From Flavivirga jejuensis (GTDB lineage Bacteria; Bacteroidota; Bacteroidia; Flavobacteriales; Flavobacteriaceae): a stretch of DNA of 64,000 nucleotides. The position numbers and the translations under genes are program-made. The DNA lies in NCBI RefSeq assembly GCF_030540765.1, contig NZ_JAUOEL010000007.1, positions 62,001 to 126,000 on the forward strand. The letters run 5' to 3'. Shown here piece by piece: positions 26,928 to 58,870 of the stretch (position 1 is its first letter; every line of letters begins with the position of its first letter). The notes below the pieces were generated by a model. That model saw only the letters and a program-made list of their open reading frames with translations, had not been told where the DNA came from and did not search any database.

Positions 26928-28673
26928 TTAGTTAACAACAAAACGAACTGCAGTCTTAATAGTTTTCAAAATATAAATACCAGATGAAAAATTACTAATA
27001 TCAATTTTAGTTCTATTCAGTTCTATATTTTGTGTATGAAGCAATTTTCCTTGAATATCGAATATTTTAATAGCCCCAATAACATCATTATTTTTTGAAA
27101 TAATCAACTCGTCATTGGCTGGCACAGGATAAAGTTTAATAACGTTCTTATCCAAATTCACATCACTAACAGACAATGTATTTAAAGCGCCAAAACCGAC
27201 TGTAGACCCAACATTAGCAACCTTATAAGGACCATCCGTACCACCAGATCCAAATTCTTCTGCTCCAGCATCAAAGCTCGCCTCTCTATTCCCATAGAGA
27301 ATATCTTTTGTTAAAAATGAATACACCCCTACTCCAGCATCAATAGCATCACTTCCAGATACTAGCCTATAAAAATCGGTACCACTAGTTAGCAGCCCCG
27401 AAGCTACTGTCTGATTAAAATTTACACCATTGGTTAAATCCCAATTTCCGTTTTGTGTAATATTACCTTCATACTTTGAAGCTCCCGTAGGAGCAGTAAT
27501 TTCTTGTAATGCAGAAATACTAGAGTTTAACATGATGTTATTTGCTATAATAACATTCTCTGGCGCCAAAGTTAAGCTGCTATTAACAACCGTTCCCACT
27601 CTAATGCCTAAATCACAATTAACAAAAGTATTATTAACTATTTGTACATTTTTAACTTGGTAGTATTCATTGAGTGCAGACCCAGGCTTACCATTAGATA
27701 TATTTATTCCTCCAGTAGTATTAGAACCTGATCCACTTGGCTTTCTGTAATTAAGACCTTCAAAATAATTATTATACACTTTATGATCTTCCCCAATAAC
27801 TCTTACGCCTCCTGAAAATGGATTATTATTTCCAAAAAAGTAGTTACCATAAACCTCTGTATTGTTTCCATGCCTTAAAGTTAAGGTACCTTGATAATCT
27901 CTAAAGGTGTTATTATAATATTTATTACTTCCACTTTTGTTTGAAATAATTTCTACTTCACCTGACCAATTATTGAATAAATTATCATAAACCTCTGTAA
28001 ATGAATCCGAAAGAGACGTAGTACTTACTCCTATTCGTATCGCGTCTTGGTCATTTAATCCATTAACATCATTATCTACAGGAACTCTATCTGCAAAATA
28101 ATTATGATGTATTTTAGAATAATCTGGTGTAGAGTTATCATGGTTGTCGTTAATTATACTTCCCACACCATTTTTTCCTATAAAAGAGCAATAACTCACT
28201 TCGTTATAGGCTCCATAAATAATGATCCATTTAAAAATATTTTCTTCTTGACTTGCTGTACCATTATATGAATCTATTTTTACATTCCTTACATGACAAT
28301 TTACACAATGGTTATTATTGGTATCTCTAAACTCAATAACTGGTTCAATTCTTTCATTATTTGAAATAAGACCTGAGGCATTTTGAAAAATAATACCTTC
28401 AAAAATAATGTAGCTCCCTCCTATACTGATATTTGAACGTCCTTCAAAAAACACATTCCCAGGATTTTGAGCTTTAATTATACATGGTTGAGAGTCTGTA
28501 GCATTTACATTAATTGATATTTGTACATCCACCCAAGTACCATCAACAAGTTCAATAACTGTACCAGCTTGTGCATTTGAAATAGCGTTCTGAAGCTCGG
28601 TATTATTACTAACAATTTGTGCTTGAACATTAATAATTAATAACAGTAAAAATACGGGTAAATAATTTTTCAT
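26928..28673 (-). CDS. PL6-family polysaccharide lyase (alginate lyase/chondroitinase-B fold), T9SS-secreted
   Basis: A 581-residue enzyme, counting from the ATG at 28673 (the open frame continues to 28703, but a signal peptide starts at MKNYLP). Signal peptide, right-handed beta-helix domain, then a T9SS sorting domain at the C-terminus (LYPVPANDELIISKNN and SGIYILKT). Catalytic residues fit PL6: Lys246 (ISNKSG) and Arg267 (LRHGN) are 21 residues apart, the same spacing as Lys250 and Arg271 in chondroitinase B, and GGVRVIGEDHKVYNNYF follows. PL6 enzymes cleave alginate or chondroitin by beta-elimination; in this algal setting alginate is likeliest. It is secreted and faces the SusC/SusD locus on the opposite strand. 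Confidence 0.87.
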   Translation of the reverse strand: MKNYLPVFLLLLIINVQAQIVSNNTELQNAISNAQAGTVIELVDGTWVDVQISINVNATDSQPCIIKAQNPGNVFFEGRSNISIGGSYIIFEGIIFQNASGLISNNERIEPVIEFRDTNNNHCVNCHVRNVKIDSYNGTASQEENIFKWIIIYGAYNEVSYCSFIGKNGVGSIINDNHDNSTPDYSKIHHNYFADRVPVDNDVNGLNDQDAIRIGVSTTSLSDSFTEVYDNLFNNWSGEVEIISNKSGSNKYYNNTFRDYQGTLTLRHGNNTEVYGNYFFGNNNPFSGGVRVIGEDHKVYNNYFEGLNYRKPSGSGSNTTGGINISNGKPGSALNEYYQVKNVQIVNNTFVNCDLGIRVGTVVNSSLTLAPENVIIANNIMLNSSISALQEITAPTGASKYEGNITQNGNWDLTNGVNFNQTVASGLLTSGTDFYRLVSGSDAIDAGVGVYSFLTKDILYGNREASFDAGAEEFGSGGTDGPYKVANVGSTVGFGALNTLSVSDVNLDKNVIKLYPVPANDELIISKNNDVIGAIKIFDIQGKLLHTQNIELNRTKIDISNFSSGIYILKTIKTAVRFVVN

Positions 28674-28705
28674 TATGTCTAAATTAAATAATTGGAAAAC
28701 CAAAT

Positions 28706-49472: not shown

Positions 49473-52439
49473 ATGAGAAATTTTATTAAACAAGGCATAA
49501 TTCTACTGTTATGTCTCTATTGTGCAAACAGTTTTGCGCAGACAAATTATGGTGAAGCATTACAAAAATCACTATTCTTTTACGAAGCTCAACAATCTGG
49601 CGAACTTCCATCCTGGAATCGTGTGAGTTGGAGAGCCGACTCAGCTTTAGGAGATGGCTCTGATATTGGAATAGATCTTACCGGAGGTTGGTATGATGCT
49701 GGAGATCATGTTAAATTTGGCTTCCCAATGGCATATAGTGTAACAACACTAGCCTGGGGAGGTATAGAATATAAAGACGCTTATAAAAGATCTGGCCAAA
49801 TGGATATTTTAAAACAAAATCTTCGTTTTGTAACAGATTATTTTATCAAGTGCCATACGGCTCCCAATGAGTTTTACGGACAACTAGGTAATGGCAGCCT
49901 AGATCATTCCTTTTGGGGCGCACCAGAAGTTATGGTAATGGACAGGCCAGCATACAAAATAGATGCTAATAACCCAGGATCTGATCTAGCAGCTGAAACG
50001 GCCGCAGCACTGGCTGCAACCAGTATCTTATTCCAAGATTCTGATCCAACTTATAGTGCTACGTTATTAACTCACGCCATACAGTTATATGATTTTGCAG
50101 ATACTTATAGAGGTATCTATTCGGAATCTATTACAGATGCCGCTGGTTTTTACAGATCATACAGTGGTTATAATGATGAATTAGTTTGGGGAGCCACCTG
50201 GTTGTACCGGGCTACCAATGATGCCACATATCTTTCGAAAGCGGAATTGGCATATGACAATTTAGGAAATGAAGGACAAAGCTCTGATAAAGCATACAAA
50301 TTTACAATGTCTTGGGACGATAAAAGTTATGGCTCTTATGTACTATTAGCTCAATTAACCGGGACAGCTAAATACATGACTGATGCAGAACGCTTTTTAG
50401 ATTTTTGGACCAGTGGTGTGAATGGAGAAACAGTAACTTACAGCCCTGGTGGTCAAGCACATTTAATACAATGGGGCTCACTTAGGTATGCTGCAAATAC
50501 GGCTTTTTTAGCTTTTGTTTATAGCGATAAGGTATCAACTTCTGCTGCAAATAAATTAAAATATCACGATTTTGCCGTGAGTCAAACAAACTATGCCTTA
50601 GGAGACAACCCGCTTAATAGAAGTTTTATGGTTGGTTTTGGAAATAATCCGGCAAATAACCCACACCATAGATCATCACACGGTCCTTGGGCAAATAGTC
50701 TTCAGGGGAGTCCAGAGATACCAAGTCATACCCTTTTTGGAGCATTAGCAGGAGGTCCTAAAGATCCTGATGATCAATTTGTTGATGATCGTGGTGATTA
50801 TATCGCCAATGAGGTGGCTTGCGATTATAATGCTTGTTTTACAGGGAATTTGGTGAGAATGTACGATGAGTTTGGAGGCGAGCCATTAGCAAATTTCCCA
50901 ATTGATGAAACTCCCAGTAGAACAGAAATTAGATCTTTTTCAAAATTTAATAGCGACAATGCTTATGGTAGCACAGTAAAAGTTTTGATTCAAAATAGAA
51001 CCGCTTGGCCAGCGCGAGTAACAGACAACCTTTCTTATAGATATTTCTTTGATATTTCTGAAGGAGTCGCCCAAGGGTATACTATTGATGATTATGATAT
51101 CACTTTAAACTCAGTTCAAGGCAATAGCACGTCTGTTATTAATGCATGGGATGCAGTAAATAACATCTATTATATGGAGGTTTCACTAGCGGGCGAAGAG
51201 ATAGCTCCAATTGGGGATCCTCAATTTCGAAGAGAAACACAAATTAATCTTCGTGTTCAAAATGGTGTTCCGTATGATACTTCTAACGACTGGTCTGCAC
51301 AAGGATTAAATAGTAGTACAGATATAGAGAGTGTTAACATTCCTGTATACGATAATGGCGTGTTGGTATTTGGTAATGAGCCAATACCTGGATCTGGTGT
51401 TAATGGTGGTACCATTACTGGAGGGCCATTTACTTTTACTGTTGGCGATGACATCGCAGACCATGTATCTGGAATTACCTTATCTGGCAATGTTGGTGAA
51501 AACTCACAATGGGTCGTAACCGATAATCAAAATAATATCGTAGCGCTACCAATTACGCCAGAAGACGTGAATTTCGATACAGAAACTTCTGGTATTAGTT
51601 TAATATGGCATTTAAGTTATAACGACGCTATTAGTGGACTTGCAATTGGAAATAATACTTCGGGCTTAACTGGAGACTTTAATCTTTCAAATACAATTTC
51701 TGTGATAAAAATAACAGAAGGTAGTAGTAACGATTGTAGTTTCGGGACTCCGCTGTCAACTTCATTACCTAATATTAACAGTGCTTTTACAAATATACAT
51801 GTGCTGGGAAATGGAGGCCCAAATCTGGATAATGTTACCATATTTACTATTAATTGGGATCTGAATAATAATGGGTTATATCAATTTTCTATAAATACCA
51901 ATAATGGCACTCCAAATTGGTATGTAGATTTAAGGGGCAGTCTTACATTTAGTTTTAACAGTACGCAACCAGACGCAACTTTTTCTGGTACTGGAATTAC
52001 TGGATTAGACGGTGCTTATTGGGTTACTGTAGATGCTGGGAATTTTGTAATGGTTTCAAAAACAGACGGATTTACACTCTATTTTAGTAATACCGCTAGC
52101 GAACCAATTTGTATTAGTTCTGTTGCAAAAATTTCAGAAAAAACCATTTCTGAAGCTTCACAAAAAATAGAATCTGTATCTAATCCAATACAAACTATTA
52201 TGCAATTGTCGCCAAACCCAGCACATAATAGCGTCACACTATCTAGCAATGACAGTTTACAACATACCATAATTCATTTAGTAAGCCTTACTGGTAGGGT
52301 TATGATGTCTGATAATATAGATGGTATTCAAAAAAAGACAACCATAAATCTTGAAGGACTTCAATCTGGGGTCTATATTCTAAAAGTTCATAATACCAAA
52401 ACAGGTATTATAATGAACAAAAAGATCATCAAAAAGTAA
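49473..52439 (+). CDS. GH9 endoglucanase with CBM3 and T9SS sorting domain
   Basis: A 988-residue secreted cellulase. Signal peptide (1-22, ending FAQ), GH9 catalytic domain (about 25-465) with the base pair Asp75/Asp78 in GGWYDAGDHVKFG and the acid Glu447 in YIANEVACDYNA; the YALGDNPLNRSFMVGFG segment supports the family. A CBM3c-type module follows (about 475-630, KVLIQNRTAWPARVTDNLSY), the GH9-CBM3c layout of processive endoglucanases. Next are a beta-sandwich region (about 645-745), the Cys-bracketed module (753-882, Cys755 and Cys880) shared with the GH5 protein, and a T9SS C-terminus. It cleaves beta-1,4-glucan outside the cell. Confidence 0.92.
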   Translation: MRNFIKQGIILLLCLYCANSFAQTNYGEALQKSLFFYEAQQSGELPSWNRVSWRADSALGDGSDIGIDLTGGWYDAGDHVKFGFPMAYSVTTLAWGGIEYKDAYKRSGQMDILKQNLRFVTDYFIKCHTAPNEFYGQLGNGSLDHSFWGAPEVMVMDRPAYKIDANNPGSDLAAETAAALAATSILFQDSDPTYSATLLTHAIQLYDFADTYRGIYSESITDAAGFYRSYSGYNDELVWGATWLYRATNDATYLSKAELAYDNLGNEGQSSDKAYKFTMSWDDKSYGSYVLLAQLTGTAKYMTDAERFLDFWTSGVNGETVTYSPGGQAHLIQWGSLRYAANTAFLAFVYSDKVSTSAANKLKYHDFAVSQTNYALGDNPLNRSFMVGFGNNPANNPHHRSSHGPWANSLQGSPEIPSHTLFGALAGGPKDPDDQFVDDRGDYIANEVACDYNACFTGNLVRMYDEFGGEPLANFPIDETPSRTEIRSFSKFNSDNAYGSTVKVLIQNRTAWPARVTDNLSYRYFFDISEGVAQGYTIDDYDITLNSVQGNSTSVINAWDAVNNIYYMEVSLAGEEIAPIGDPQFRRETQINLRVQNGVPYDTSNDWSAQGLNSSTDIESVNIPVYDNGVLVFGNEPIPGSGVNGGTITGGPFTFTVGDDIADHVSGITLSGNVGENSQWVVTDNQNNIVALPITPEDVNFDTETSGISLIWHLSYNDAISGLAIGNNTSGLTGDFNLSNTISVIKITEGSSNDCSFGTPLSTSLPNINSAFTNIHVLGNGGPNLDNVTIFTINWDLNNNGLYQFSINTNNGTPNWYVDLRGSLTFSFNSTQPDATFSGTGITGLDGAYWVTVDAGNFVMVSKTDGFTLYFSNTASEPICISSVAKISEKTISEASQKIESVSNPIQTIMQLSPNPAHNSVTLSSNDSLQHTIIHLVSLTGRVMMSDNIDGIQKKTTINLEGLQSGVYILKVHNTKTGIIMNKKIIKK

Positions 52440-52454
52440 TTTTTAATTTAAAAC

Positions 52455-52481
52455 AATTCCTAAAGGTGGGGGCTTTGGGAA
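52455..52481. terminator. Hairpin between the GH9 and GH5 genes
   Basis: ATTCCTAAAG pairs with CTTTGGGAAT (one T-G pair) around a GTGGGGG loop. It lies about 16 bp after the GH9 stop codon with no T-run, so it may be a processing or partial-termination site. Confidence 0.4.
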
Positions 52482-52509
52482 TGTTTCTTACATAATAATA
52501 AAACAAAAA

Positions 52510-54648
52510 ATGAGATATTTTATATTTATAATTTTTAGCATTGTATGGCTTTTTAGCGCTACAACGAACACGCATGCACAGCAACAAAATTTTTTAAACA
52601 CTTCTGGAAATAAATTATTTGATTCTGCAGGTAATGAGGTTCGTCTTACCGGAGTTAATTGGTTTGGTTTCGAAACATCTTTATACAGTCCTCATGGAAT
52701 TTGGTCTAGAGATACAAAAAGTGTATTAAAGCAAATTAAAGACTTAGGGTTTAATACTATTAGAATTCCTTGGTGTAACGAAATGTTGAACCCTGAGGCT
52801 AGTATAACCATAAACTCTTTTGGAACAGACCCCTACTCTGGAGTTTCACCAATGAATGCCGAGGAAGCTACGCTAAGTAAACCTATTGAGTTATTAGATG
52901 TTATAGTAAACTGGTGTCAAGAAAATAATATAAAAATTGTATTAGATAATCACTCCAGAGCAGCAGATGGTTTTTTAAACGAAGCCTATTGGTACACCGA
53001 TACTTTTTCTGAACAAGAATGGATAGCAGATTGGATATTTTTAGCGAATAGATATAAAAACTTTTCGGCTGTAGTTGCCATGGATCTTAATAACGAACCT
53101 CATGGGTCTACTTGGGGAGATAGCAACCCAAGTACAGATTGGAATAAGGCAGCAGAGCGTTGTGGTAATGCTATTTTAGAAGTGCATCCAGATGTATTAA
53201 TTATAGTTGAAGGTGTTGGTGAGTTTGAAGGAGATTCTTATTGGTGGGGCGGACAACTTAAAGGTGTAACAAAGTATCCTGTGCAATTATCTAATCCAAG
53301 TAAATTGTTTTATTCGGCACATGAATATGGTCCAGAGGTAGCGCCACAAGATTGGTTTGATTCATCAGATTTCCCTAATAATATGCCTGCAATTTGGAAT
53401 GAACATTTTCATTATTTATATGAAAACAATACATCTCCTTTATTTATTGGTGAATTCGGAATTAAAAATCAAAGTAATGCTACTGCTTATACCTGGTATA
53501 CGGAATGGATGGACTTTATGGGAAGTATTTATTCTTGGACTTTTTGGACCATGAACCCTAATTCTGGTGATACTGGGGGCATTTTAATGGATGATTGGAC
53601 CAGTGTTAATCAATGGAAAATGGACGTTTTAAGCCCTCATTTTGCACCGCTAATCCCAAATGTAATTGGTGGAAGTATCAATACACCTCCATTAGCAAGC
53701 ATAACAGCTTCTGTTACTTCTGGAAATGCACCGTTAAGTGTGCAGTTTGACGCTTCAGGATCATCGGATATTGATGGCGATACCTTAACCTATAACTGGG
53801 ATTTCGGAAATGGTGATACATCATTAGAAATGAATCCTCTAATTACTTATACAACTGCTGGATCTTATACGGTAACACTTACTGTTAATGATGGTGAAGT
53901 CAATTCTGCACCTGTAACCCAAACAATACTTGTAGAAGTAGATGGCGTTAACACTTGTGATTTTGATACGCCTATATCTAGTGCCCTACCAAGTTTAAAT
54001 GCTTCATATCATAATATTTATGTTTTAGGAAGTGGCGGTCCGAATTTAGATAATGTGACCACATTTACTATTAATTGGGATCTGAATAATAATGGGTTAT
54101 ATCAATTTTCTATAAATACCAATAATGGTACTCCAAACTGGTATGTAGATTTAAGAGAGAGTCTTACAGCCAGTTTTAACAGTACGCAACCAGAAGCGAC
54201 TTTTTCTGGTACTGGAATTACTGGATTAGACGGTGCATACTGGGTTACTGCAGATGCTGGGAATTTTGTAATGGTTTCTAAAACAGGTGGGTTTACTCTG
54301 TATTTTAGCAGTACAGCCAGCCAGCCAATTTGCGATAGTTCTGTTGCAAAAATTTCAGAAAAAGGGACTTCTGAAGCTTCAGAAAAAATAGAGATTGCTC
54401 CTGGTTTTATAAAATTAACGCCAAACCCTGTACTGGACATCGTGACATTATCTAGTAATGAAAGTTTACAACATTCTACAATTAAAATAATAAGCCTTAC
54501 AGGTAGAGTTGTTATGTTTGAAAGTGTAGAGGATGATCAAAAAGAGAAGACAATAAGCATTGAAGCCCTGCAATCTGGAATTTATATTTTAGAAGCTTTT
54601 AATACTAAGACAGGTGTATTAAAAAACAAAAAGATTATTAAAAAATAG
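52510..54648 (+). CDS. GH5 endoglucanase (GH5_1-like) with PKD and T9SS domains
   Basis: A 712-residue secreted glucanase. Signal peptide (1-23), then the GH5 barrel (about 25-380) with acid Glu196 (DLNNEPHGS) and nucleophile Glu315 (FIGEFGIK); LTGVNWFGFET and HGIWSRDTKSVL resemble the Acidothermus E1 cellulase, so subfamily 1 is likely. A PKD domain (about 392-478, ASGSSDIDGDTLTYNWDFG) follows, then the Cys-bracketed module (about 481-610, Cys483 and Cys608) and a T9SS C-terminus. It starts 70 bp after the GH9 gene and probably shares its transcript. It cleaves beta-1,4-linkages in cellulose or mixed-linkage glucan. Confidence 0.9.
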   Translation: MRYFIFIIFSIVWLFSATTNTHAQQQNFLNTSGNKLFDSAGNEVRLTGVNWFGFETSLYSPHGIWSRDTKSVLKQIKDLGFNTIRIPWCNEMLNPEASITINSFGTDPYSGVSPMNAEEATLSKPIELLDVIVNWCQENNIKIVLDNHSRAADGFLNEAYWYTDTFSEQEWIADWIFLANRYKNFSAVVAMDLNNEPHGSTWGDSNPSTDWNKAAERCGNAILEVHPDVLIIVEGVGEFEGDSYWWGGQLKGVTKYPVQLSNPSKLFYSAHEYGPEVAPQDWFDSSDFPNNMPAIWNEHFHYLYENNTSPLFIGEFGIKNQSNATAYTWYTEWMDFMGSIYSWTFWTMNPNSGDTGGILMDDWTSVNQWKMDVLSPHFAPLIPNVIGGSINTPPLASITASVTSGNAPLSVQFDASGSSDIDGDTLTYNWDFGNGDTSLEMNPLITYTTAGSYTVTLTVNDGEVNSAPVTQTILVEVDGVNTCDFDTPISSALPSLNASYHNIYVLGSGGPNLDNVTTFTINWDLNNNGLYQFSINTNNGTPNWYVDLRESLTASFNSTQPEATFSGTGITGLDGAYWVTADAGNFVMVSKTGGFTLYFSSTASQPICDSSVAKISEKGTSEASEKIEIAPGFIKLTPNPVLDIVTLSSNESLQHSTIKIISLTGRVVMFESVEDDQKEKTISIEALQSGIYILEAFNTKTGVLKNKKIIKK

Positions 54649-54949: not shown

Positions 54950-57900
54950 ATGAAAAAAAACCTATTATTTAAATCTATTATCACCTTTACAGTCCTGTTT
55001 TTTTCAGGAAGTATAGGATATACTCAATGTTCAGAACTCATTTTTAGTGATGAATTTTCAGGTACCTCCGTTGATCAAAGTAAATGGACCTCTATTGTTG
55101 GAGATGGATGCCCTACTTTATGCGGTTTTGGAAATAATGAAGAACAATGGTATCAACCAGAAAACACAACAGTACAGAATGGAAATTTAATAATTACGAC
55201 CAGAAATGAAGCCGTAGGAGGAAAACAATACACGTCTTCTAAATTAATTACTTCTGGTAAATTTAACTCCAAATATGGGCGCTATGAAGCCAGTATAAAA
55301 TTACCTTCTGCAGGAGGTGTATGGCCAGCTTTCTGGATGTTACCCGAAAATAGTAATTGGCCATTTACGGGGGAAATAGATATTATGGAAGCCAAGCATA
55401 AAAATGCTGAGAGTATAGAAGGAACTGTTCATTACTCTAATGGTGACTGGCAATATAATGGCAGAGAATATAATGCCGGACTCGATCTTTCTGCAGGATT
55501 TCATGAATATGCTGTAGAATGGGAACCCTCAGAAATTAGATGGTATGTAGATGATCAATTATATCATACGGTAACTCCAGCTAATACAGTAGATCCATGG
55601 CCTTTTAACGAAGGTGATTGGTACATTATTCTTAATGTAGCAGTTGGAGGTTCTGGAACACCTTACACAGGTAACATTCCTCCTACTCCATCAGATTACC
55701 CTACGCAGATGGAAGTTGATTATGTACGCATATACAGTAGTGTATTTAATACACAACTTATAGGAGATAACAAAGTATATGAAGGCGAAACGGATAAGGC
55801 ATATAGTATAACGGCAACAAGTGGAGCATCCTATAATTGGTCAGTACCCAATGGAGCTACAATAATTTCAGGACAAGGAACCAGCTCTATTTTGGTTGAT
55901 TGGGGTACTACTGGTGGAGATGTAAAGGTTCTAGTAAATATTCCTAATTGTGGAGAAAATGAATTCAAAATGAATGTTACTGTAAATCCAGAACTAGTAT
56001 TAGAATTTATTTATGAAGACTTTGAGAGCAATCGAAAGTTAACATATTCCTCAAAAACAGATGGCGTACTTAGTCAATCTGTAGCTAACCCAGGAATAAA
56101 CTCCGTAAATAATTCTTTAACAGTAGGAAAATATGTAAGAGCCTCGGGAGCTCAGTATGATGGATTGTATATGAACTCTCCAGATATCGGAAATGCTTTA
56201 GAGTATACTTCCAAAGAAAAAATAATTTGGATGGATGTTTATAGTGAAGCCCCAATTGGTACAGAATTCATTTTACAAATAGAAAATGGAGCGCTTTCTG
56301 CAGGAGATTGGCCTTCTGGTAGACATAGTAGATACAGTGCAAAGACGGTTACTCAAAATAAATGGGAAACCCTAGAGTTCGAATTAATTGATAGACCAGA
56401 TACCAGTGTAGGCGCTTTAGAAGCAGATCAACTTGTACTCTTAATAGATTCAGATAGTTATACAGGACATACAATATATATAGATAACATAAGAAAAATG
56501 GATGCCCCAGATCCTGTTTTATTAGAAGAAGTTGTAATAGCAAATTATGATGGAATAAATCAATTGACGAATTTTTTCCAAAATGGTGTGTACACAAAAA
56601 ATGTAACAAATCCAGATATCAATAACGTTAATAATAGTGCTAATGTGGCAAAATATATTAGAAATGCCGTCGAAACCTATGATGTGGTAGCTTTTAATAC
56701 CACAGCTATAGAGAATAGTGGTCCTTTTATTAAAGGAGAACATATCTTCTATATGGATCTATATACGGCTGCACCTGTGGGAACAGAAATTTTGTTAAGT
56801 TTAGAAAATCAAGCGAATTCTGATAATGATTTTCCTGTAGGTAGAAATAGTCAGTTTAGCGGTGTTATTAAAGAACAAAACGCTTGGCATACTGTAGCAT
56901 TTAGTCACTCTTCATCACCAGATGCAGGAACTTCTAATCTTTCTATCAATGAAATTTCGATACTTTTTAATTCTGGTTCTAATACTACTGAGACTTACTA
57001 TTTTGATAATTTTAGATATGGTATAACCAAATTACCATCTTCTTATCAATTTTCGGAAATGATTCAAGATTATAATGGAATTAATAATCTTACACTAAAT
57101 CCTACGACTACTGGAACTTATACAACAGATGTAGAAAATCCAGAAACGAATACCGTTAATGGGTCTTCAAGAGCAGCTAGCTACGCTAGAAATGCGGGAG
57201 AATTATATGATGCCTTATTTTTTGACACTAATGCCATAAATGATGCAAGTGCATATGTTTCAGAAGAAAAGAGATTTACTATGGATCTATATACTAGTGC
57301 ACCAATAGGCACTGTAATTAGCTGGCAATTGGAAGCTAGCTCTTTATCCACCCCATCTAATTATCCATCAGGAAGGCATAGTATATATCAGGCAGCTGTA
57401 AAAGAACAAAATAGTTGGCATACAATAGAATTTGTACTCACAGAAACACCAGATCTAATCGTTACTGATGCACAAATTGATAACATTGTATTCTTGTTCG
57501 ACCCGAATAGCAGTAACGGGGATACTTATTATATAGATAACTTAAGGTCTCTAACAACAGATGATGCCATACAAACACCTATTCTATCTTCAATAATCGT
57601 TTCATCTACGGATGCTTCAATAGGTTTAAATCAAACAGCATCATTTACTGCTCGGGGATTTGATCAAAATGGAGATATTTTTGCAACTAATTTTACCTGG
57701 ACAGTAACGGGAGGCTCTATAGATACTAATGGATTATATACAGGTAGCACTTTGGGAACGCATACAATAACTGCTACAAGCGGATCTATTTCAGGTACAG
57801 CTTCTATTATTGTAAATGAAAATTCAGCATCTTACACAGCAATACCAGGGATTATAGAAGCAGAACAGTATAAAGAAGGCGGAGAAGGAATTGGTTATCA

Positions 57901-58870
57901 TGATACGAGTACAGGAAATACAGGTGGAGCGTATCGACAAGATGATGTAGATATAGAAACCACTGAAGACTCAACAGGGATGTATAATGTGGGCTGGATT
58001 GATTCAGGAGAATGGTTAGCATATAATATTGATGGTACTGCTCCAACAAATGTTTATGATATCAACTTCCGTGTAGCCTCCCCCGATGGTAATGGTAAAT
58101 TTCATCTAGAGTTGGATGGCGTTTCTATTACAGAAGTGATATCTGTACCTGATACTGGCGGATGGCACAACTATGAAACAATTACCGTGACAGGTATTTC
58201 TATCAATAACGGAAATCATGAATTAAGAATTGTATTTGATTTGTCTGGATTAAATCTTAATTTCATAGAACTAAAAGCTTCCGAGGATACTGGTGGAGAA
58301 ACAAATTGTAATGGATTAGCAGCAAATGGTCAATATAGTTATGAGATTTCAGCAGATACTGTAAATCCAACAATTACTTTTATTCCAGAAATAGCAGGAA
58401 TAGGAGATACTGTATGTATTTTATATTACAGTACTTCTGCAACGGGGCCATACCCAGGATATGGTGTTACTCCAAATGTACCTTTCCAGACAAATACTAA
58501 TGAAGGAGAACATGTTTATTTCTATTACACTTATAGCTTACCTACAGGTGGTGAAAATAATACAGGAGCTTCTCCACATGATTTTGTGGTAGGCTCTTGT
58601 AGTGCTAGTAGTCAATTATCTGGTTTGGGTATAGAGAATGAAATATATTTATATACTAACCCTATAACTGATGAACTAAATATCAAAGGAGTTACCAACG
58701 AATCGCAGATATCAATCTTGAATATGTCTGGTCAATTAGAGACTATTCCAGAACTACAAAGCGGCGACAATTCTTCAAAATTTGATGTCAGTTCTTTAAA
58801 GTCAGGAATCTATTTTGTAAGAATATTCAATAGATCAATTTCAAAAGTATTAAAATTCATGAAGAAATAA
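54950..58870 (+). CDS. Multimodular GH16 laminarinase with triplicated modules, CBM6, CBM56-like and T9SS domains
   Basis: A 1306-residue secreted beta-glucanase. Signal peptide (1-25), GH16 domain (about 28-262) with catalytic Glu142, Asp144 and Glu147 in GEIDIMEA, and VWPAFWMLPENSNWP, the pattern of laminarinases. Then a PKD-like section (about 270-345), three homologous modules of about 170 residues each (about 352-523, 527-695 and 702-868), an Ig-like Big_2 domain (about 876-955), a CBM6 (about 960-1108), a CBM56-like module (about 1112-1225, PHDFVVGSC end) and a T9SS C-terminus. It should hydrolyse beta-1,3-glucan; CBM56 is known to bind beta-1,3-glucan. It is far longer than the usual 300-600 residues. 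Confidence 0.9.
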   Translation: MKKNLLFKSIITFTVLFFSGSIGYTQCSELIFSDEFSGTSVDQSKWTSIVGDGCPTLCGFGNNEEQWYQPENTTVQNGNLIITTRNEAVGGKQYTSSKLITSGKFNSKYGRYEASIKLPSAGGVWPAFWMLPENSNWPFTGEIDIMEAKHKNAESIEGTVHYSNGDWQYNGREYNAGLDLSAGFHEYAVEWEPSEIRWYVDDQLYHTVTPANTVDPWPFNEGDWYIILNVAVGGSGTPYTGNIPPTPSDYPTQMEVDYVRIYSSVFNTQLIGDNKVYEGETDKAYSITATSGASYNWSVPNGATIISGQGTSSILVDWGTTGGDVKVLVNIPNCGENEFKMNVTVNPELVLEFIYEDFESNRKLTYSSKTDGVLSQSVANPGINSVNNSLTVGKYVRASGAQYDGLYMNSPDIGNALEYTSKEKIIWMDVYSEAPIGTEFILQIENGALSAGDWPSGRHSRYSAKTVTQNKWETLEFELIDRPDTSVGALEADQLVLLIDSDSYTGHTIYIDNIRKMDAPDPVLLEEVVIANYDGINQLTNFFQNGVYTKNVTNPDINNVNNSANVAKYIRNAVETYDVVAFNTTAIENSGPFIKGEHIFYMDLYTAAPVGTEILLSLENQANSDNDFPVGRNSQFSGVIKEQNAWHTVAFSHSSSPDAGTSNLSINEISILFNSGSNTTETYYFDNFRYGITKLPSSYQFSEMIQDYNGINNLTLNPTTTGTYTTDVENPETNTVNGSSRAASYARNAGELYDALFFDTNAINDASAYVSEEKRFTMDLYTSAPIGTVISWQLEASSLSTPSNYPSGRHSIYQAAVKEQNSWHTIEFVLTETPDLIVTDAQIDNIVFLFDPNSSNGDTYYIDNLRSLTTDDAIQTPILSSIIVSSTDASIGLNQTASFTARGFDQNGDIFATNFTWTVTGGSIDTNGLYTGSTLGTHTITATSGSISGTASIIVNENSASYTAIPGIIEAEQYKEGGEGIGYHDTSTGNTGGAYRQDDVDIETTEDSTGMYNVGWIDSGEWLAYNIDGTAPTNVYDINFRVASPDGNGKFHLELDGVSITEVISVPDTGGWHNYETITVTGISINNGNHELRIVFDLSGLNLNFIELKASEDTGGETNCNGLAANGQYSYEISADTVNPTITFIPEIAGIGDTVCILYYSTSATGPYPGYGVTPNVPFQTNTNEGEHVYFYYTYSLPTGGENNTGASPHDFVVGSCSASSQLSGLGIENEIYLYTNPITDELNIKGVTNESQISILNMSGQLETIPELQSGDNSSKFDVSSLKSGIYFVRIFNRSISKVLKFMKK

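What the first reader, a model, noticed from the sequence alone, without database searches (positions are those of the whole stretch)
51723..54360. Cys-bracketed 126-residue module shared by GH9 and GH5 cellulases
Cys755-Cys880 in the GH9 protein and Cys483-Cys608 in the GH5 protein have identical spacing (125), with LDNVTxFTINWDLNNNGLYQ and GTPNWYVDLR nearly unchanged between them. It sits just before the T9SS domain. I know no carbohydrate-binding family with this pattern, so it may be an undescribed cellulose-binding module.
Basis: partly seen in the sequence, partly recalled or inferred. Interest (0 to 1): 0.7.

Follow-up and report, generated by a model that had tools for sequence, protein, structure and literature searches.

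The report
Cellulose-anchoring CBM113 modules on cellulases
Two neighbouring enzymes that digest cellulose carry the same small anchoring module, which belongs to a binding-module family first published in 2026 and looks tuned to cellulose alone rather than to cellulose plus the seaweed gel alginate.

Summary
A Cys-bracketed 126-residue module ends the GH9 and GH5 cellulases just before their T9SS tails: 105 of 126 residues and 312 of 378 bases are identical. It is a sugar-binding module, but not undescribed. It matches solved structure 9KVN, the UKD domain of CelAly (E 3.5e-43 and 3.9e-43). A May 2026 ISME J paper (PMC13235733) reports that UKD binds insoluble cellulose and alginate and founds family CBM113. 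No Pfam or NCBIfam model reaches its cut-off on it.

A survey of 275 full-length modules adds three points.
- The family splits into a cellulase-side and a lyase-linked branch. Basic residues at both alginate positions 36 and 100 occur in 51 of 77 lyase-linked and 0 of 189 cellulase-side modules.
- The window modules sit in the cellulase-side branch. They keep the aromatic platform (Y, W, Y) but have T/T and V/A at 36 and 100, so I predict cellulose binding with little or no alginate binding. This is untested, and the residue pattern is confounded with a single tree split.
- The striking identity of the two copies is probably partly recent gene conversion.

The genome's third copy is on a GH48 cellulase.

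The parts
49473..52439 (+). GH9 cellulase gene, 988 aa: GH9 - CBM3 - unassigned stretch - CBM113 - T9SS tail
   Evidence: ORF, Pfam GH9 E 1.1e-154
49548..50846 (+). GH9 catalytic domain (residues 26-458)
   Evidence: Pfam PF00759
50952..51182 (+). CBM3 (residues 494-570)
   Evidence: Pfam PF00942 E 4.3e-09
51735..52112 (+). CBM113 module of the GH9 protein, Cys755-Cys880
   Evidence: identity to the GH5 copy; phmmer 9kvn_A E 3.5e-43
51879..51923 (+). Stretch holding the codons of the predicted cellulose platform in the GH9 copy: Y49, W62, Y63 of the module (UKD Y50, Y63, Y64)
   Evidence: alignment A1, residues; UKD mutants in PMC13235733 section 18
51861..52049 (+). Probable converted core, GH9 side (module codons 43-105)
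   Evidence: 61, 55 and 60 of 63 bases in three 21-codon blocks, each above both orthologue comparisons
52212..52430 (+). T9SS C-terminal sorting domain of the GH9 protein (914-986)
   Evidence: Pfam PF18962
52510..54648 (+). GH5 cellulase gene, 712 aa: GH5 - PKD - CBM113 - T9SS tail
   Evidence: ORF, Pfam
52627..53565 (+). GH5 catalytic domain (residues 40-352)
   Evidence: Pfam PF00150 E 7.7e-50
53680..53925 (+). PKD domain (residues 391-472)
   Evidence: Pfam PF18911 E 5.7e-19
53956..54333 (+). CBM113 module of the GH5 protein, Cys483-Cys608
   Evidence: phmmer 9kvn_A E 3.9e-43
54100..54144 (+). Stretch holding the codons of the predicted cellulose platform in the GH5 copy: Y49, W62, Y63 of the module
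   Evidence: alignment A1, residues
54082..54270 (+). Probable converted core, GH5 side (module codons 43-105)
54421..54639 (+). T9SS C-terminal sorting domain of the GH5 protein (638-710)
   Evidence: Pfam PF18962

Best explanation
The module is a CBM113 carbohydrate-binding module of the cellulase-side branch. It is a small domain whose two end cysteines probably form a disulfide. A flat platform of aromatic residues (Y49, W62, Y63 of the module) stacks on the face of insoluble cellulose and keeps the secreted GH9 and GH5 cellulases at the fibre surface. Unlike CelAly's UKD, it lacks two of the three basic residues tied to alginate binding, so it should bind alginate weakly or not at all. 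Shown here: homology to UKD, the architecture, the residue identities and the branch it falls in. Reported in the literature for UKD only: the fold, cellulose and alginate binding, and the roles of the residues. Inferred: that the window copies share the fold, bind cellulose, bind little alginate, and have the disulfide.
For: Match to 9KVN over residues 1-124 of 126, E 3.5e-43 and 3.9e-43. UKD binds PASC and Avicel but not cellohexaose; mutants point to Y50/Y63/Y64 for cellulose and R36/K100/K110 for alginate (PMC13235733 section 18). The 9KVN letters carry R36, Y50, Y63, Y64, K100 and K110 at those numbers. Window copies: T, Y, W, Y, V/A, K. In 275 full-length modules, aromatic at 50, 63 and 64 in 185 of 189 cellulase-side modules; basic at both 36 and 100 in 51 of 77 lyase-linked against 0 of 189; after thinning to 75% identity 15 of 30 against 0 of 77. 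Median net charge -2 (lyase-linked, n 30) against -7 (cellulase-side, n 77); the window copies are -6 and -7, UKD 0 over the 125 letters used. The tree, built without columns 36, 100 and 110, puts both window copies in a branch of 78 modules, 77 cellulase-side and 1 unassigned, SH-aLRT 93. The three copies that the profile finds in this genome are on GH9, GH5 and GH48 proteins, although it has 8 PL7-type alginate lyase matches, none at a CBM113 place.
Against: No binding was measured for these copies. K110 is kept in both, and the third own-genome copy has K100 (T, K, K), so some alginate contact is possible. The residue and partner association rests on essentially one split: only 1 independent pair on supported branches (2 on all branches), so the sign test cannot reach significance. 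The branch support of 93 is below the tool's starred level. Some cellulase-side modules do carry a basic residue at 36 (21 of 189) or at 100 (12 of 189), and 26 of 77 lyase-linked modules lack the pair; one GH5+CBM6 module groups with UKD. The paper calls R36, K100 and K110 conserved.
Confidence: 0.82

Rival explanations
1. The window modules are dual binders like CelAly's UKD, tethering cellulases both to cellulose and to the surrounding alginate of brown algal walls.
For: Same family as UKD, K110 kept, and the genome encodes PL7-type alginate lyases. The paper regards the alginate residues as conserved.
Against: T/T at 36 and V/A at 100; net charge -6 and -7 against 0 for UKD; 0 of 189 cellulase-side modules have both basic residues.
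Confidence: 0.22
2. The module binds a different beta-glucan (laminarin, mixed-linkage glucan, xyloglucan) better than cellulose, in keeping with the neighbouring GH16 gene.
For: A GH16 protein is encoded directly downstream. One GH16-like and one GH26-like protein carry the module in the survey.
Against: The largest cellulase-side partner clusters are GH9, GH48, GH5 and AA10, with some GH8. UKD binds insoluble cellulose but not soluble cellohexaose. The GH16 protein itself has no CBM113 match.
Confidence: 0.1
3. The module is a structural spacer or a secretion element next to the T9SS tail, without sugar binding.
For: In 175 of 216 complete proteins the last module lies within 130 residues of the C-terminus.
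Against: In 36 of 216 it is internal and in 5 of 216 N-terminal, for example at the start of the own-genome GH48 protein. The platform residues are aromatic in 185 of 189 cellulase-side modules. The homologue binds cellulose.
Confidence: 0.05

Closest known systems
CBM113, founding member UKD of CelAly (PDB 9KVN; Aquimarina sp. 2-A2; PMC13235733)
   Same: Homologous over the whole module (59% to the GH9 copy), Cys at both ends, aromatic platform kept, appended to polysaccharide-degrading enzymes of flavobacteria
   Different: Window copies have W for Y63, T for R36 and V/A for K100; they are on GH9 and GH5 cellulases instead of a GH5+PL31 cellulase/alginate lyase, and lie in another branch of the family tree
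CBM3 (PF00942)
   Same: Cellulose module also present in the same GH9 protein
   Different: No detectable sequence relation: the Pfam scans of the two modules alone do not list CBM3
CBM96 and CBM80
   Same: The paper's neighbour-joining tree places UKD close to these (read in section 19)
   Different: Not compared here; no Pfam family reached its cut-off with the module

Membership tests
CBM113 | Sequence homology to the founding UKD domain | tested here: met
   phmmer E 3.5e-43 and 3.9e-43, GH5 copy aligned over residues 1-124
CBM113 | About 127-residue domain with Cys at both ends (UKD Cys884-Cys1010) | tested here: met
   Cys755-Cys880 and Cys483-Cys608; 272 of 275 survey modules
CBM113 | Non-catalytic module joined to a carbohydrate-active enzyme | tested here: met
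   GH9 and GH5
CBM113 | Aromatic cellulose-binding platform Y50, Y63, Y64 | tested here: met
   Y, W, Y in both copies; aromatic at all three, W for Y63
CBM113 | Alginate residues R36, K100, K110 (a property of the founding member; CAZy families rest on sequence similarity, from general knowledge, so I do not take it as defining) | tested here: not met
   1 of 3 kept (K110); T/T at 36, V/A at 100
CBM113 | Nine-stranded beta-barrel fold of 9KVN | not tested
CBM113 | Binding to insoluble cellulose | not testable with these tools
   needs purified protein
CBM113 | Assignment of these proteins by CAZy | not testable with these tools
   CAZy/dbCAN not available
Any Pfam CBM family | Score over the curated cut-off | tested here: not met
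   only SCP2 and Flagellin_D3 (GH9 copy) and Kre9_KNH (GH5 copy), all under their cut-offs

The most novel reading that the evidence does not exclude
CBM113 is two functional kinds under one name: a cellulase branch with an acidic surface and an aromatic platform often rich in Trp (two or more Trp at 50/63/64 in 86 of 189 against 0 of 77) that binds cellulose alone, and a lyase branch with basic residues at 36 and 100 that binds anionic uronate polysaccharides, alginate and perhaps ulvan (it also sits on ulvan-lyase-like proteins), in which the aromatic platform is sometimes lost (13 of 77). UKD's dual binding would then be a feature of the lyase branch, and the window modules the single-substrate kind.
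Probability: 0.5. Interest if true: 0.45.

Novelty: new member of a known kind. Interest (0 to 1): 0.33.

Why it matters
It shows that an eye-catching unknown module belongs to a very recently described binding family that no Pfam or NCBIfam model held here recognises. It also gives a sequence rule (positions 36 and 100) that may predict whether a CBM113 module is of the cellulose or the uronate kind. I did not see this rule in the parts of the founding paper that I read (abstract, sections 18 and 19, and found passages), and a pull-down could test it.

Tried and rejected
Undescribed CBM: rejected by the 9KVN match and the paper. Weak Pfam hits of the module (SCP2, Flagellin_D3, Kre9_KNH) are under their cut-offs. 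The own-genome matches L004 and L005 (E 0.08 and 0.2) are most likely chance: the profile does not list them at E up to 1. Simple conservation as the whole reason for the near-identity of the two copies: rejected in part by the block pattern, although over the whole module the two copies (0.83 of bases, 0.71 of codons at shared residues) are hardly closer to each other than to their same-genus orthologues (0.83 and 0.68; 0.79 and 0.69). Repeated independent gain of the basic pair with lyases: not supported, the tree gives 2 label changes and 1 supported pair; holding all cellulase-side modules in one clade is not rejected either (AU p 0.415). AlphaFold model and fold search: job not finished at the last poll, so no fold search was made. 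First clustering of partner segments over-merged, replaced by a stricter one. Partner classes rest on one representative for each of 28 clusters, all 28 scanned by Pfam, three also by PDB search, and the own-genome GH48 protein directly; the other proteins were not scanned one by one. The survey is not even: one search's match list was cut, the query profile is mostly cellulase-linked, and 11 of 286 module matches were dropped as too short. The 'cellulase-side' class also holds a cytochrome-like group, one GH16-like, one GH26-like, one expansin-like and one further GH5-like protein; 9 modules (two unknown clusters and one fragment) were counted apart as unassigned.

Full report
Observation. 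The GH9 protein (window 49473-52439) and the GH5 protein (52510-54648) each carry a module from Cys to Cys of 126 residues: 755-880 and 483-608. Without gaps, 105 of 126 residues and 312 of 378 bases agree; 29 codons differ silently and 21 change the residue. Pfam places GH9, CBM3 and the T9SS tail in the first, GH5, PKD and the T9SS tail in the second; on the module it lists only Kre9_KNH in the GH5 protein (E 0.21, under its cut-off) and the edge of an equally weak Cadherin-like match. NCBIfam lists only a far sub-cut-off CrcB match there, and Pfam scans of the modules alone give only sub-cut-off matches.

What it is. phmmer against PDB sequences gives one strong match for each copy: 9kvn_A, 'the unknown domain UKD in the bifunctional enzyme CelAly', E 3.5e-43 and 3.9e-43; the next matches of the GH5 copy are antibody chains at E 0.11 or worse. 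The paper behind it (PMC13235733, ISME J, 8 May 2026; I saw the abstract, sections 18 and 19 and found passages, not the whole text, figures or supplements) reports that UKD binds insoluble cellulose and alginate but not cellohexaose, has a nine-stranded beta-barrel, uses Y50, Y63 and Y64 for cellulose, may use R36, K100 and K110 for alginate, and founds CBM113 with 553 homologues, 83.7% of the Bacteroidota ones in Flavobacteriales, particularly Aquimarina. A search for 'CBM113' in the held library finds only this paper; a search with Aquimarina, GH48 and GH9 terms finds only this paper, and one on dual binding finds it and an unrelated-looking beta-glucan review (listing only).

How the window copies differ. 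On the alignment with 9KVN (numbering checked) both copies have Y, W, Y at 50, 63, 64, T at 36, V (GH9) or A (GH5) at 100 and K at 110. The cellulose platform is kept with a Tyr-to-Trp change; two of three alginate residues are gone.

Survey. With a 13-row profile I searched whole genomes, the window's own being counted in the first three: 4 of 12 of its genus, 10 of 397 drawn from its family, 4 of 395 drawn from its phylum (draws overlap), 39 of 66 of the genus that holds Aquimarina amphilecti (same contig place as), and 11 of 166 of the genus that holds Tenacibaculum agarivorans (likewise). From the listed matches I fetched 128 regions in 56 genomes and found 231 non-redundant proteins with 286 module matches, 275 of them full length. 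Partners were classed from one representative per cluster: GH9, GH48, GH5, AA10, GH8 and a few others on the cellulase side; PL14, GH5 with a beta-helix as in CelAly, PL14 with DUF5060, PF14099, other beta-helix proteins and ulvan lyase on the lyase side. Basic at 36: lyase 68 of 77, cellulase side 21 of 189. Basic at 100: 52 of 77 against 12 of 189. Both: 51 of 77 against 0 of 189; unassigned 7 of 9. Basic at 110: 75 of 77 against 135 of 189. Aromatic at 50, 63 and 64: 64 of 77 against 185 of 189. By partner, 'both' is 16 of 33 for PL14, 20 of 24 for CelAly-like, 8 of 10 for PL14 with DUF5060, 3 of 5 for ulvan lyase, 3 of 3 for PF14099 and 1 of 2 for other beta-helix proteins. Net charge differs too (medians -2 and -7).

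Limits of that result. A tree of 110 modules (UKD included) without columns 36, 100 and 110 needs only 2 changes between the classes (500 shuffles: mean 27), with the window copies in the 78-module cellulase-side branch, SH-aLRT 93; the tool warns of few columns and many open forks. So the residue rule marks essentially one split, and independent-pair tests have no power (1 supported pair). One GH5+CBM6 module (R, Q, K) sits beside UKD, perhaps an exchange between classes.

Gene conversion. In 21-codon blocks the two window copies agree in 35, 51, 61, 55, 60 and 50 of 63 bases; GH9 with its orthologue in G010 53, 54, 54, 48, 51, 54; GH5 with its orthologue 45, 52, 51, 51, 52, 49. The longest exact run is 66 bases between the two window copies against 17 and 21 with the orthologues and 30 between the two orthologues. 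A core of the module was therefore probably copied recently from one gene to the other, while the start of the module kept its own history. This is a pattern seen in one genome against one relative, not a formal test, and over the whole module the difference from the orthologues is small.

Setting. The genome's third CBM113 is N-terminal in a 998-residue CBM113-PKD-GH48-T9SS protein next to a GH8 gene. In two same-genus relatives (G005, G008) the GH9, GH48 and GH5 genes lie side by side, each with a CBM113; in a third (G010) GH9 and GH5 are adjacent as in the window. In the survey 35 proteins carry both the GH9-type and the GH48-type segment, 12 GH9 alone and 6 GH48 alone. The set looks like a coordinated crystalline-cellulose system whose parts share one anchor (inference). 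The genome has 8 PL7-type matches, none on a contig that holds a CBM113; a PL14 search found none, without a ringing control.

Verdict. A real module, correctly spotted, correctly guessed to be a cellulose-binding kind, but already described as CBM113. The new parts are the cellulase-side placement, the predicted loss of alginate binding and the probable conversion between the two genes.

Noticed in passing
L015:3739-6735 (-) (G000:C12): The own-genome CBM113-PKD-GH48 protein begins with a signal-like stretch and 'GEALHKSWFFYEAQQS', closely resembling the N-terminus of the GH9 cellulase (window GH9: 'GEALQKSLFFYEAQQS') set directly before CBM113. It looks like a relic of a fused GH9...GH48 ancestor; the same-genus GH48 proteins in L247 and L248 lack it.
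   Followed up: partly
L151:12391-18678 and 17 similar proteins (cluster 7): Proteins of about 2230 to 2330 residues where complete, with weak beta-propeller-like and RoxA/CCP-like cytochrome c matches, CBM3, PKD domains and CBM113, several beside GH9-GH48 and GH5 cellulase genes; possibly a redox partner for AA10 LPMOs (one representative scanned).
   Followed up: no
L203:13404-15479 (-): A CBM113 protein, representative of a cluster of 5, matches solved short ulvan lyases (E 5.7e-157); modules of that cluster are basic at position 36 in 5 of 5. The basic type may serve anionic algal polysaccharides in general.
   Followed up: partly
window 54950-58870: The GH16 protein holds three repeats of about 165 residues (within residues 345-880; 63 of 169, 66 of 160 and 69 of 161 aligned residues identical pairwise) with no Pfam match, between a PKD-like and a Big_2 domain.
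   Followed up: no
window 58307-58600: The GH16 protein has its own Cys-bracketed module (Cys1120-Cys1217) just before the T9SS tail, without Pfam match; residues 1122-1233 have no PDB sequence match at E up to 1.
   Followed up: no
window 51372-51734: The stretch of the GH9 protein before CBM113 ('FTFTVGDDIADHVSGITLSG...') has only sub-cut-off Pfam matches; similar letters recur between the two CBM113 modules of fused GH9-GH48 proteins (cluster 6).
   Followed up: no
L208:11783-13279 (+) and L217:4304-6526 (-): CBM113 proteins with Big_7 domains like CelAly's alginate-binding B1 (9kvu_A, E 1.6e-11 and 3e-09) but no catalytic domain over a Pfam cut-off; all 8 modules of their two clusters are basic at 36. 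Candidate unknown lyases.
   Followed up: no
window 26928-28703 (-): A chondroitinase-B-like protein with a T9SS tail lies elsewhere in the window.
   Followed up: no
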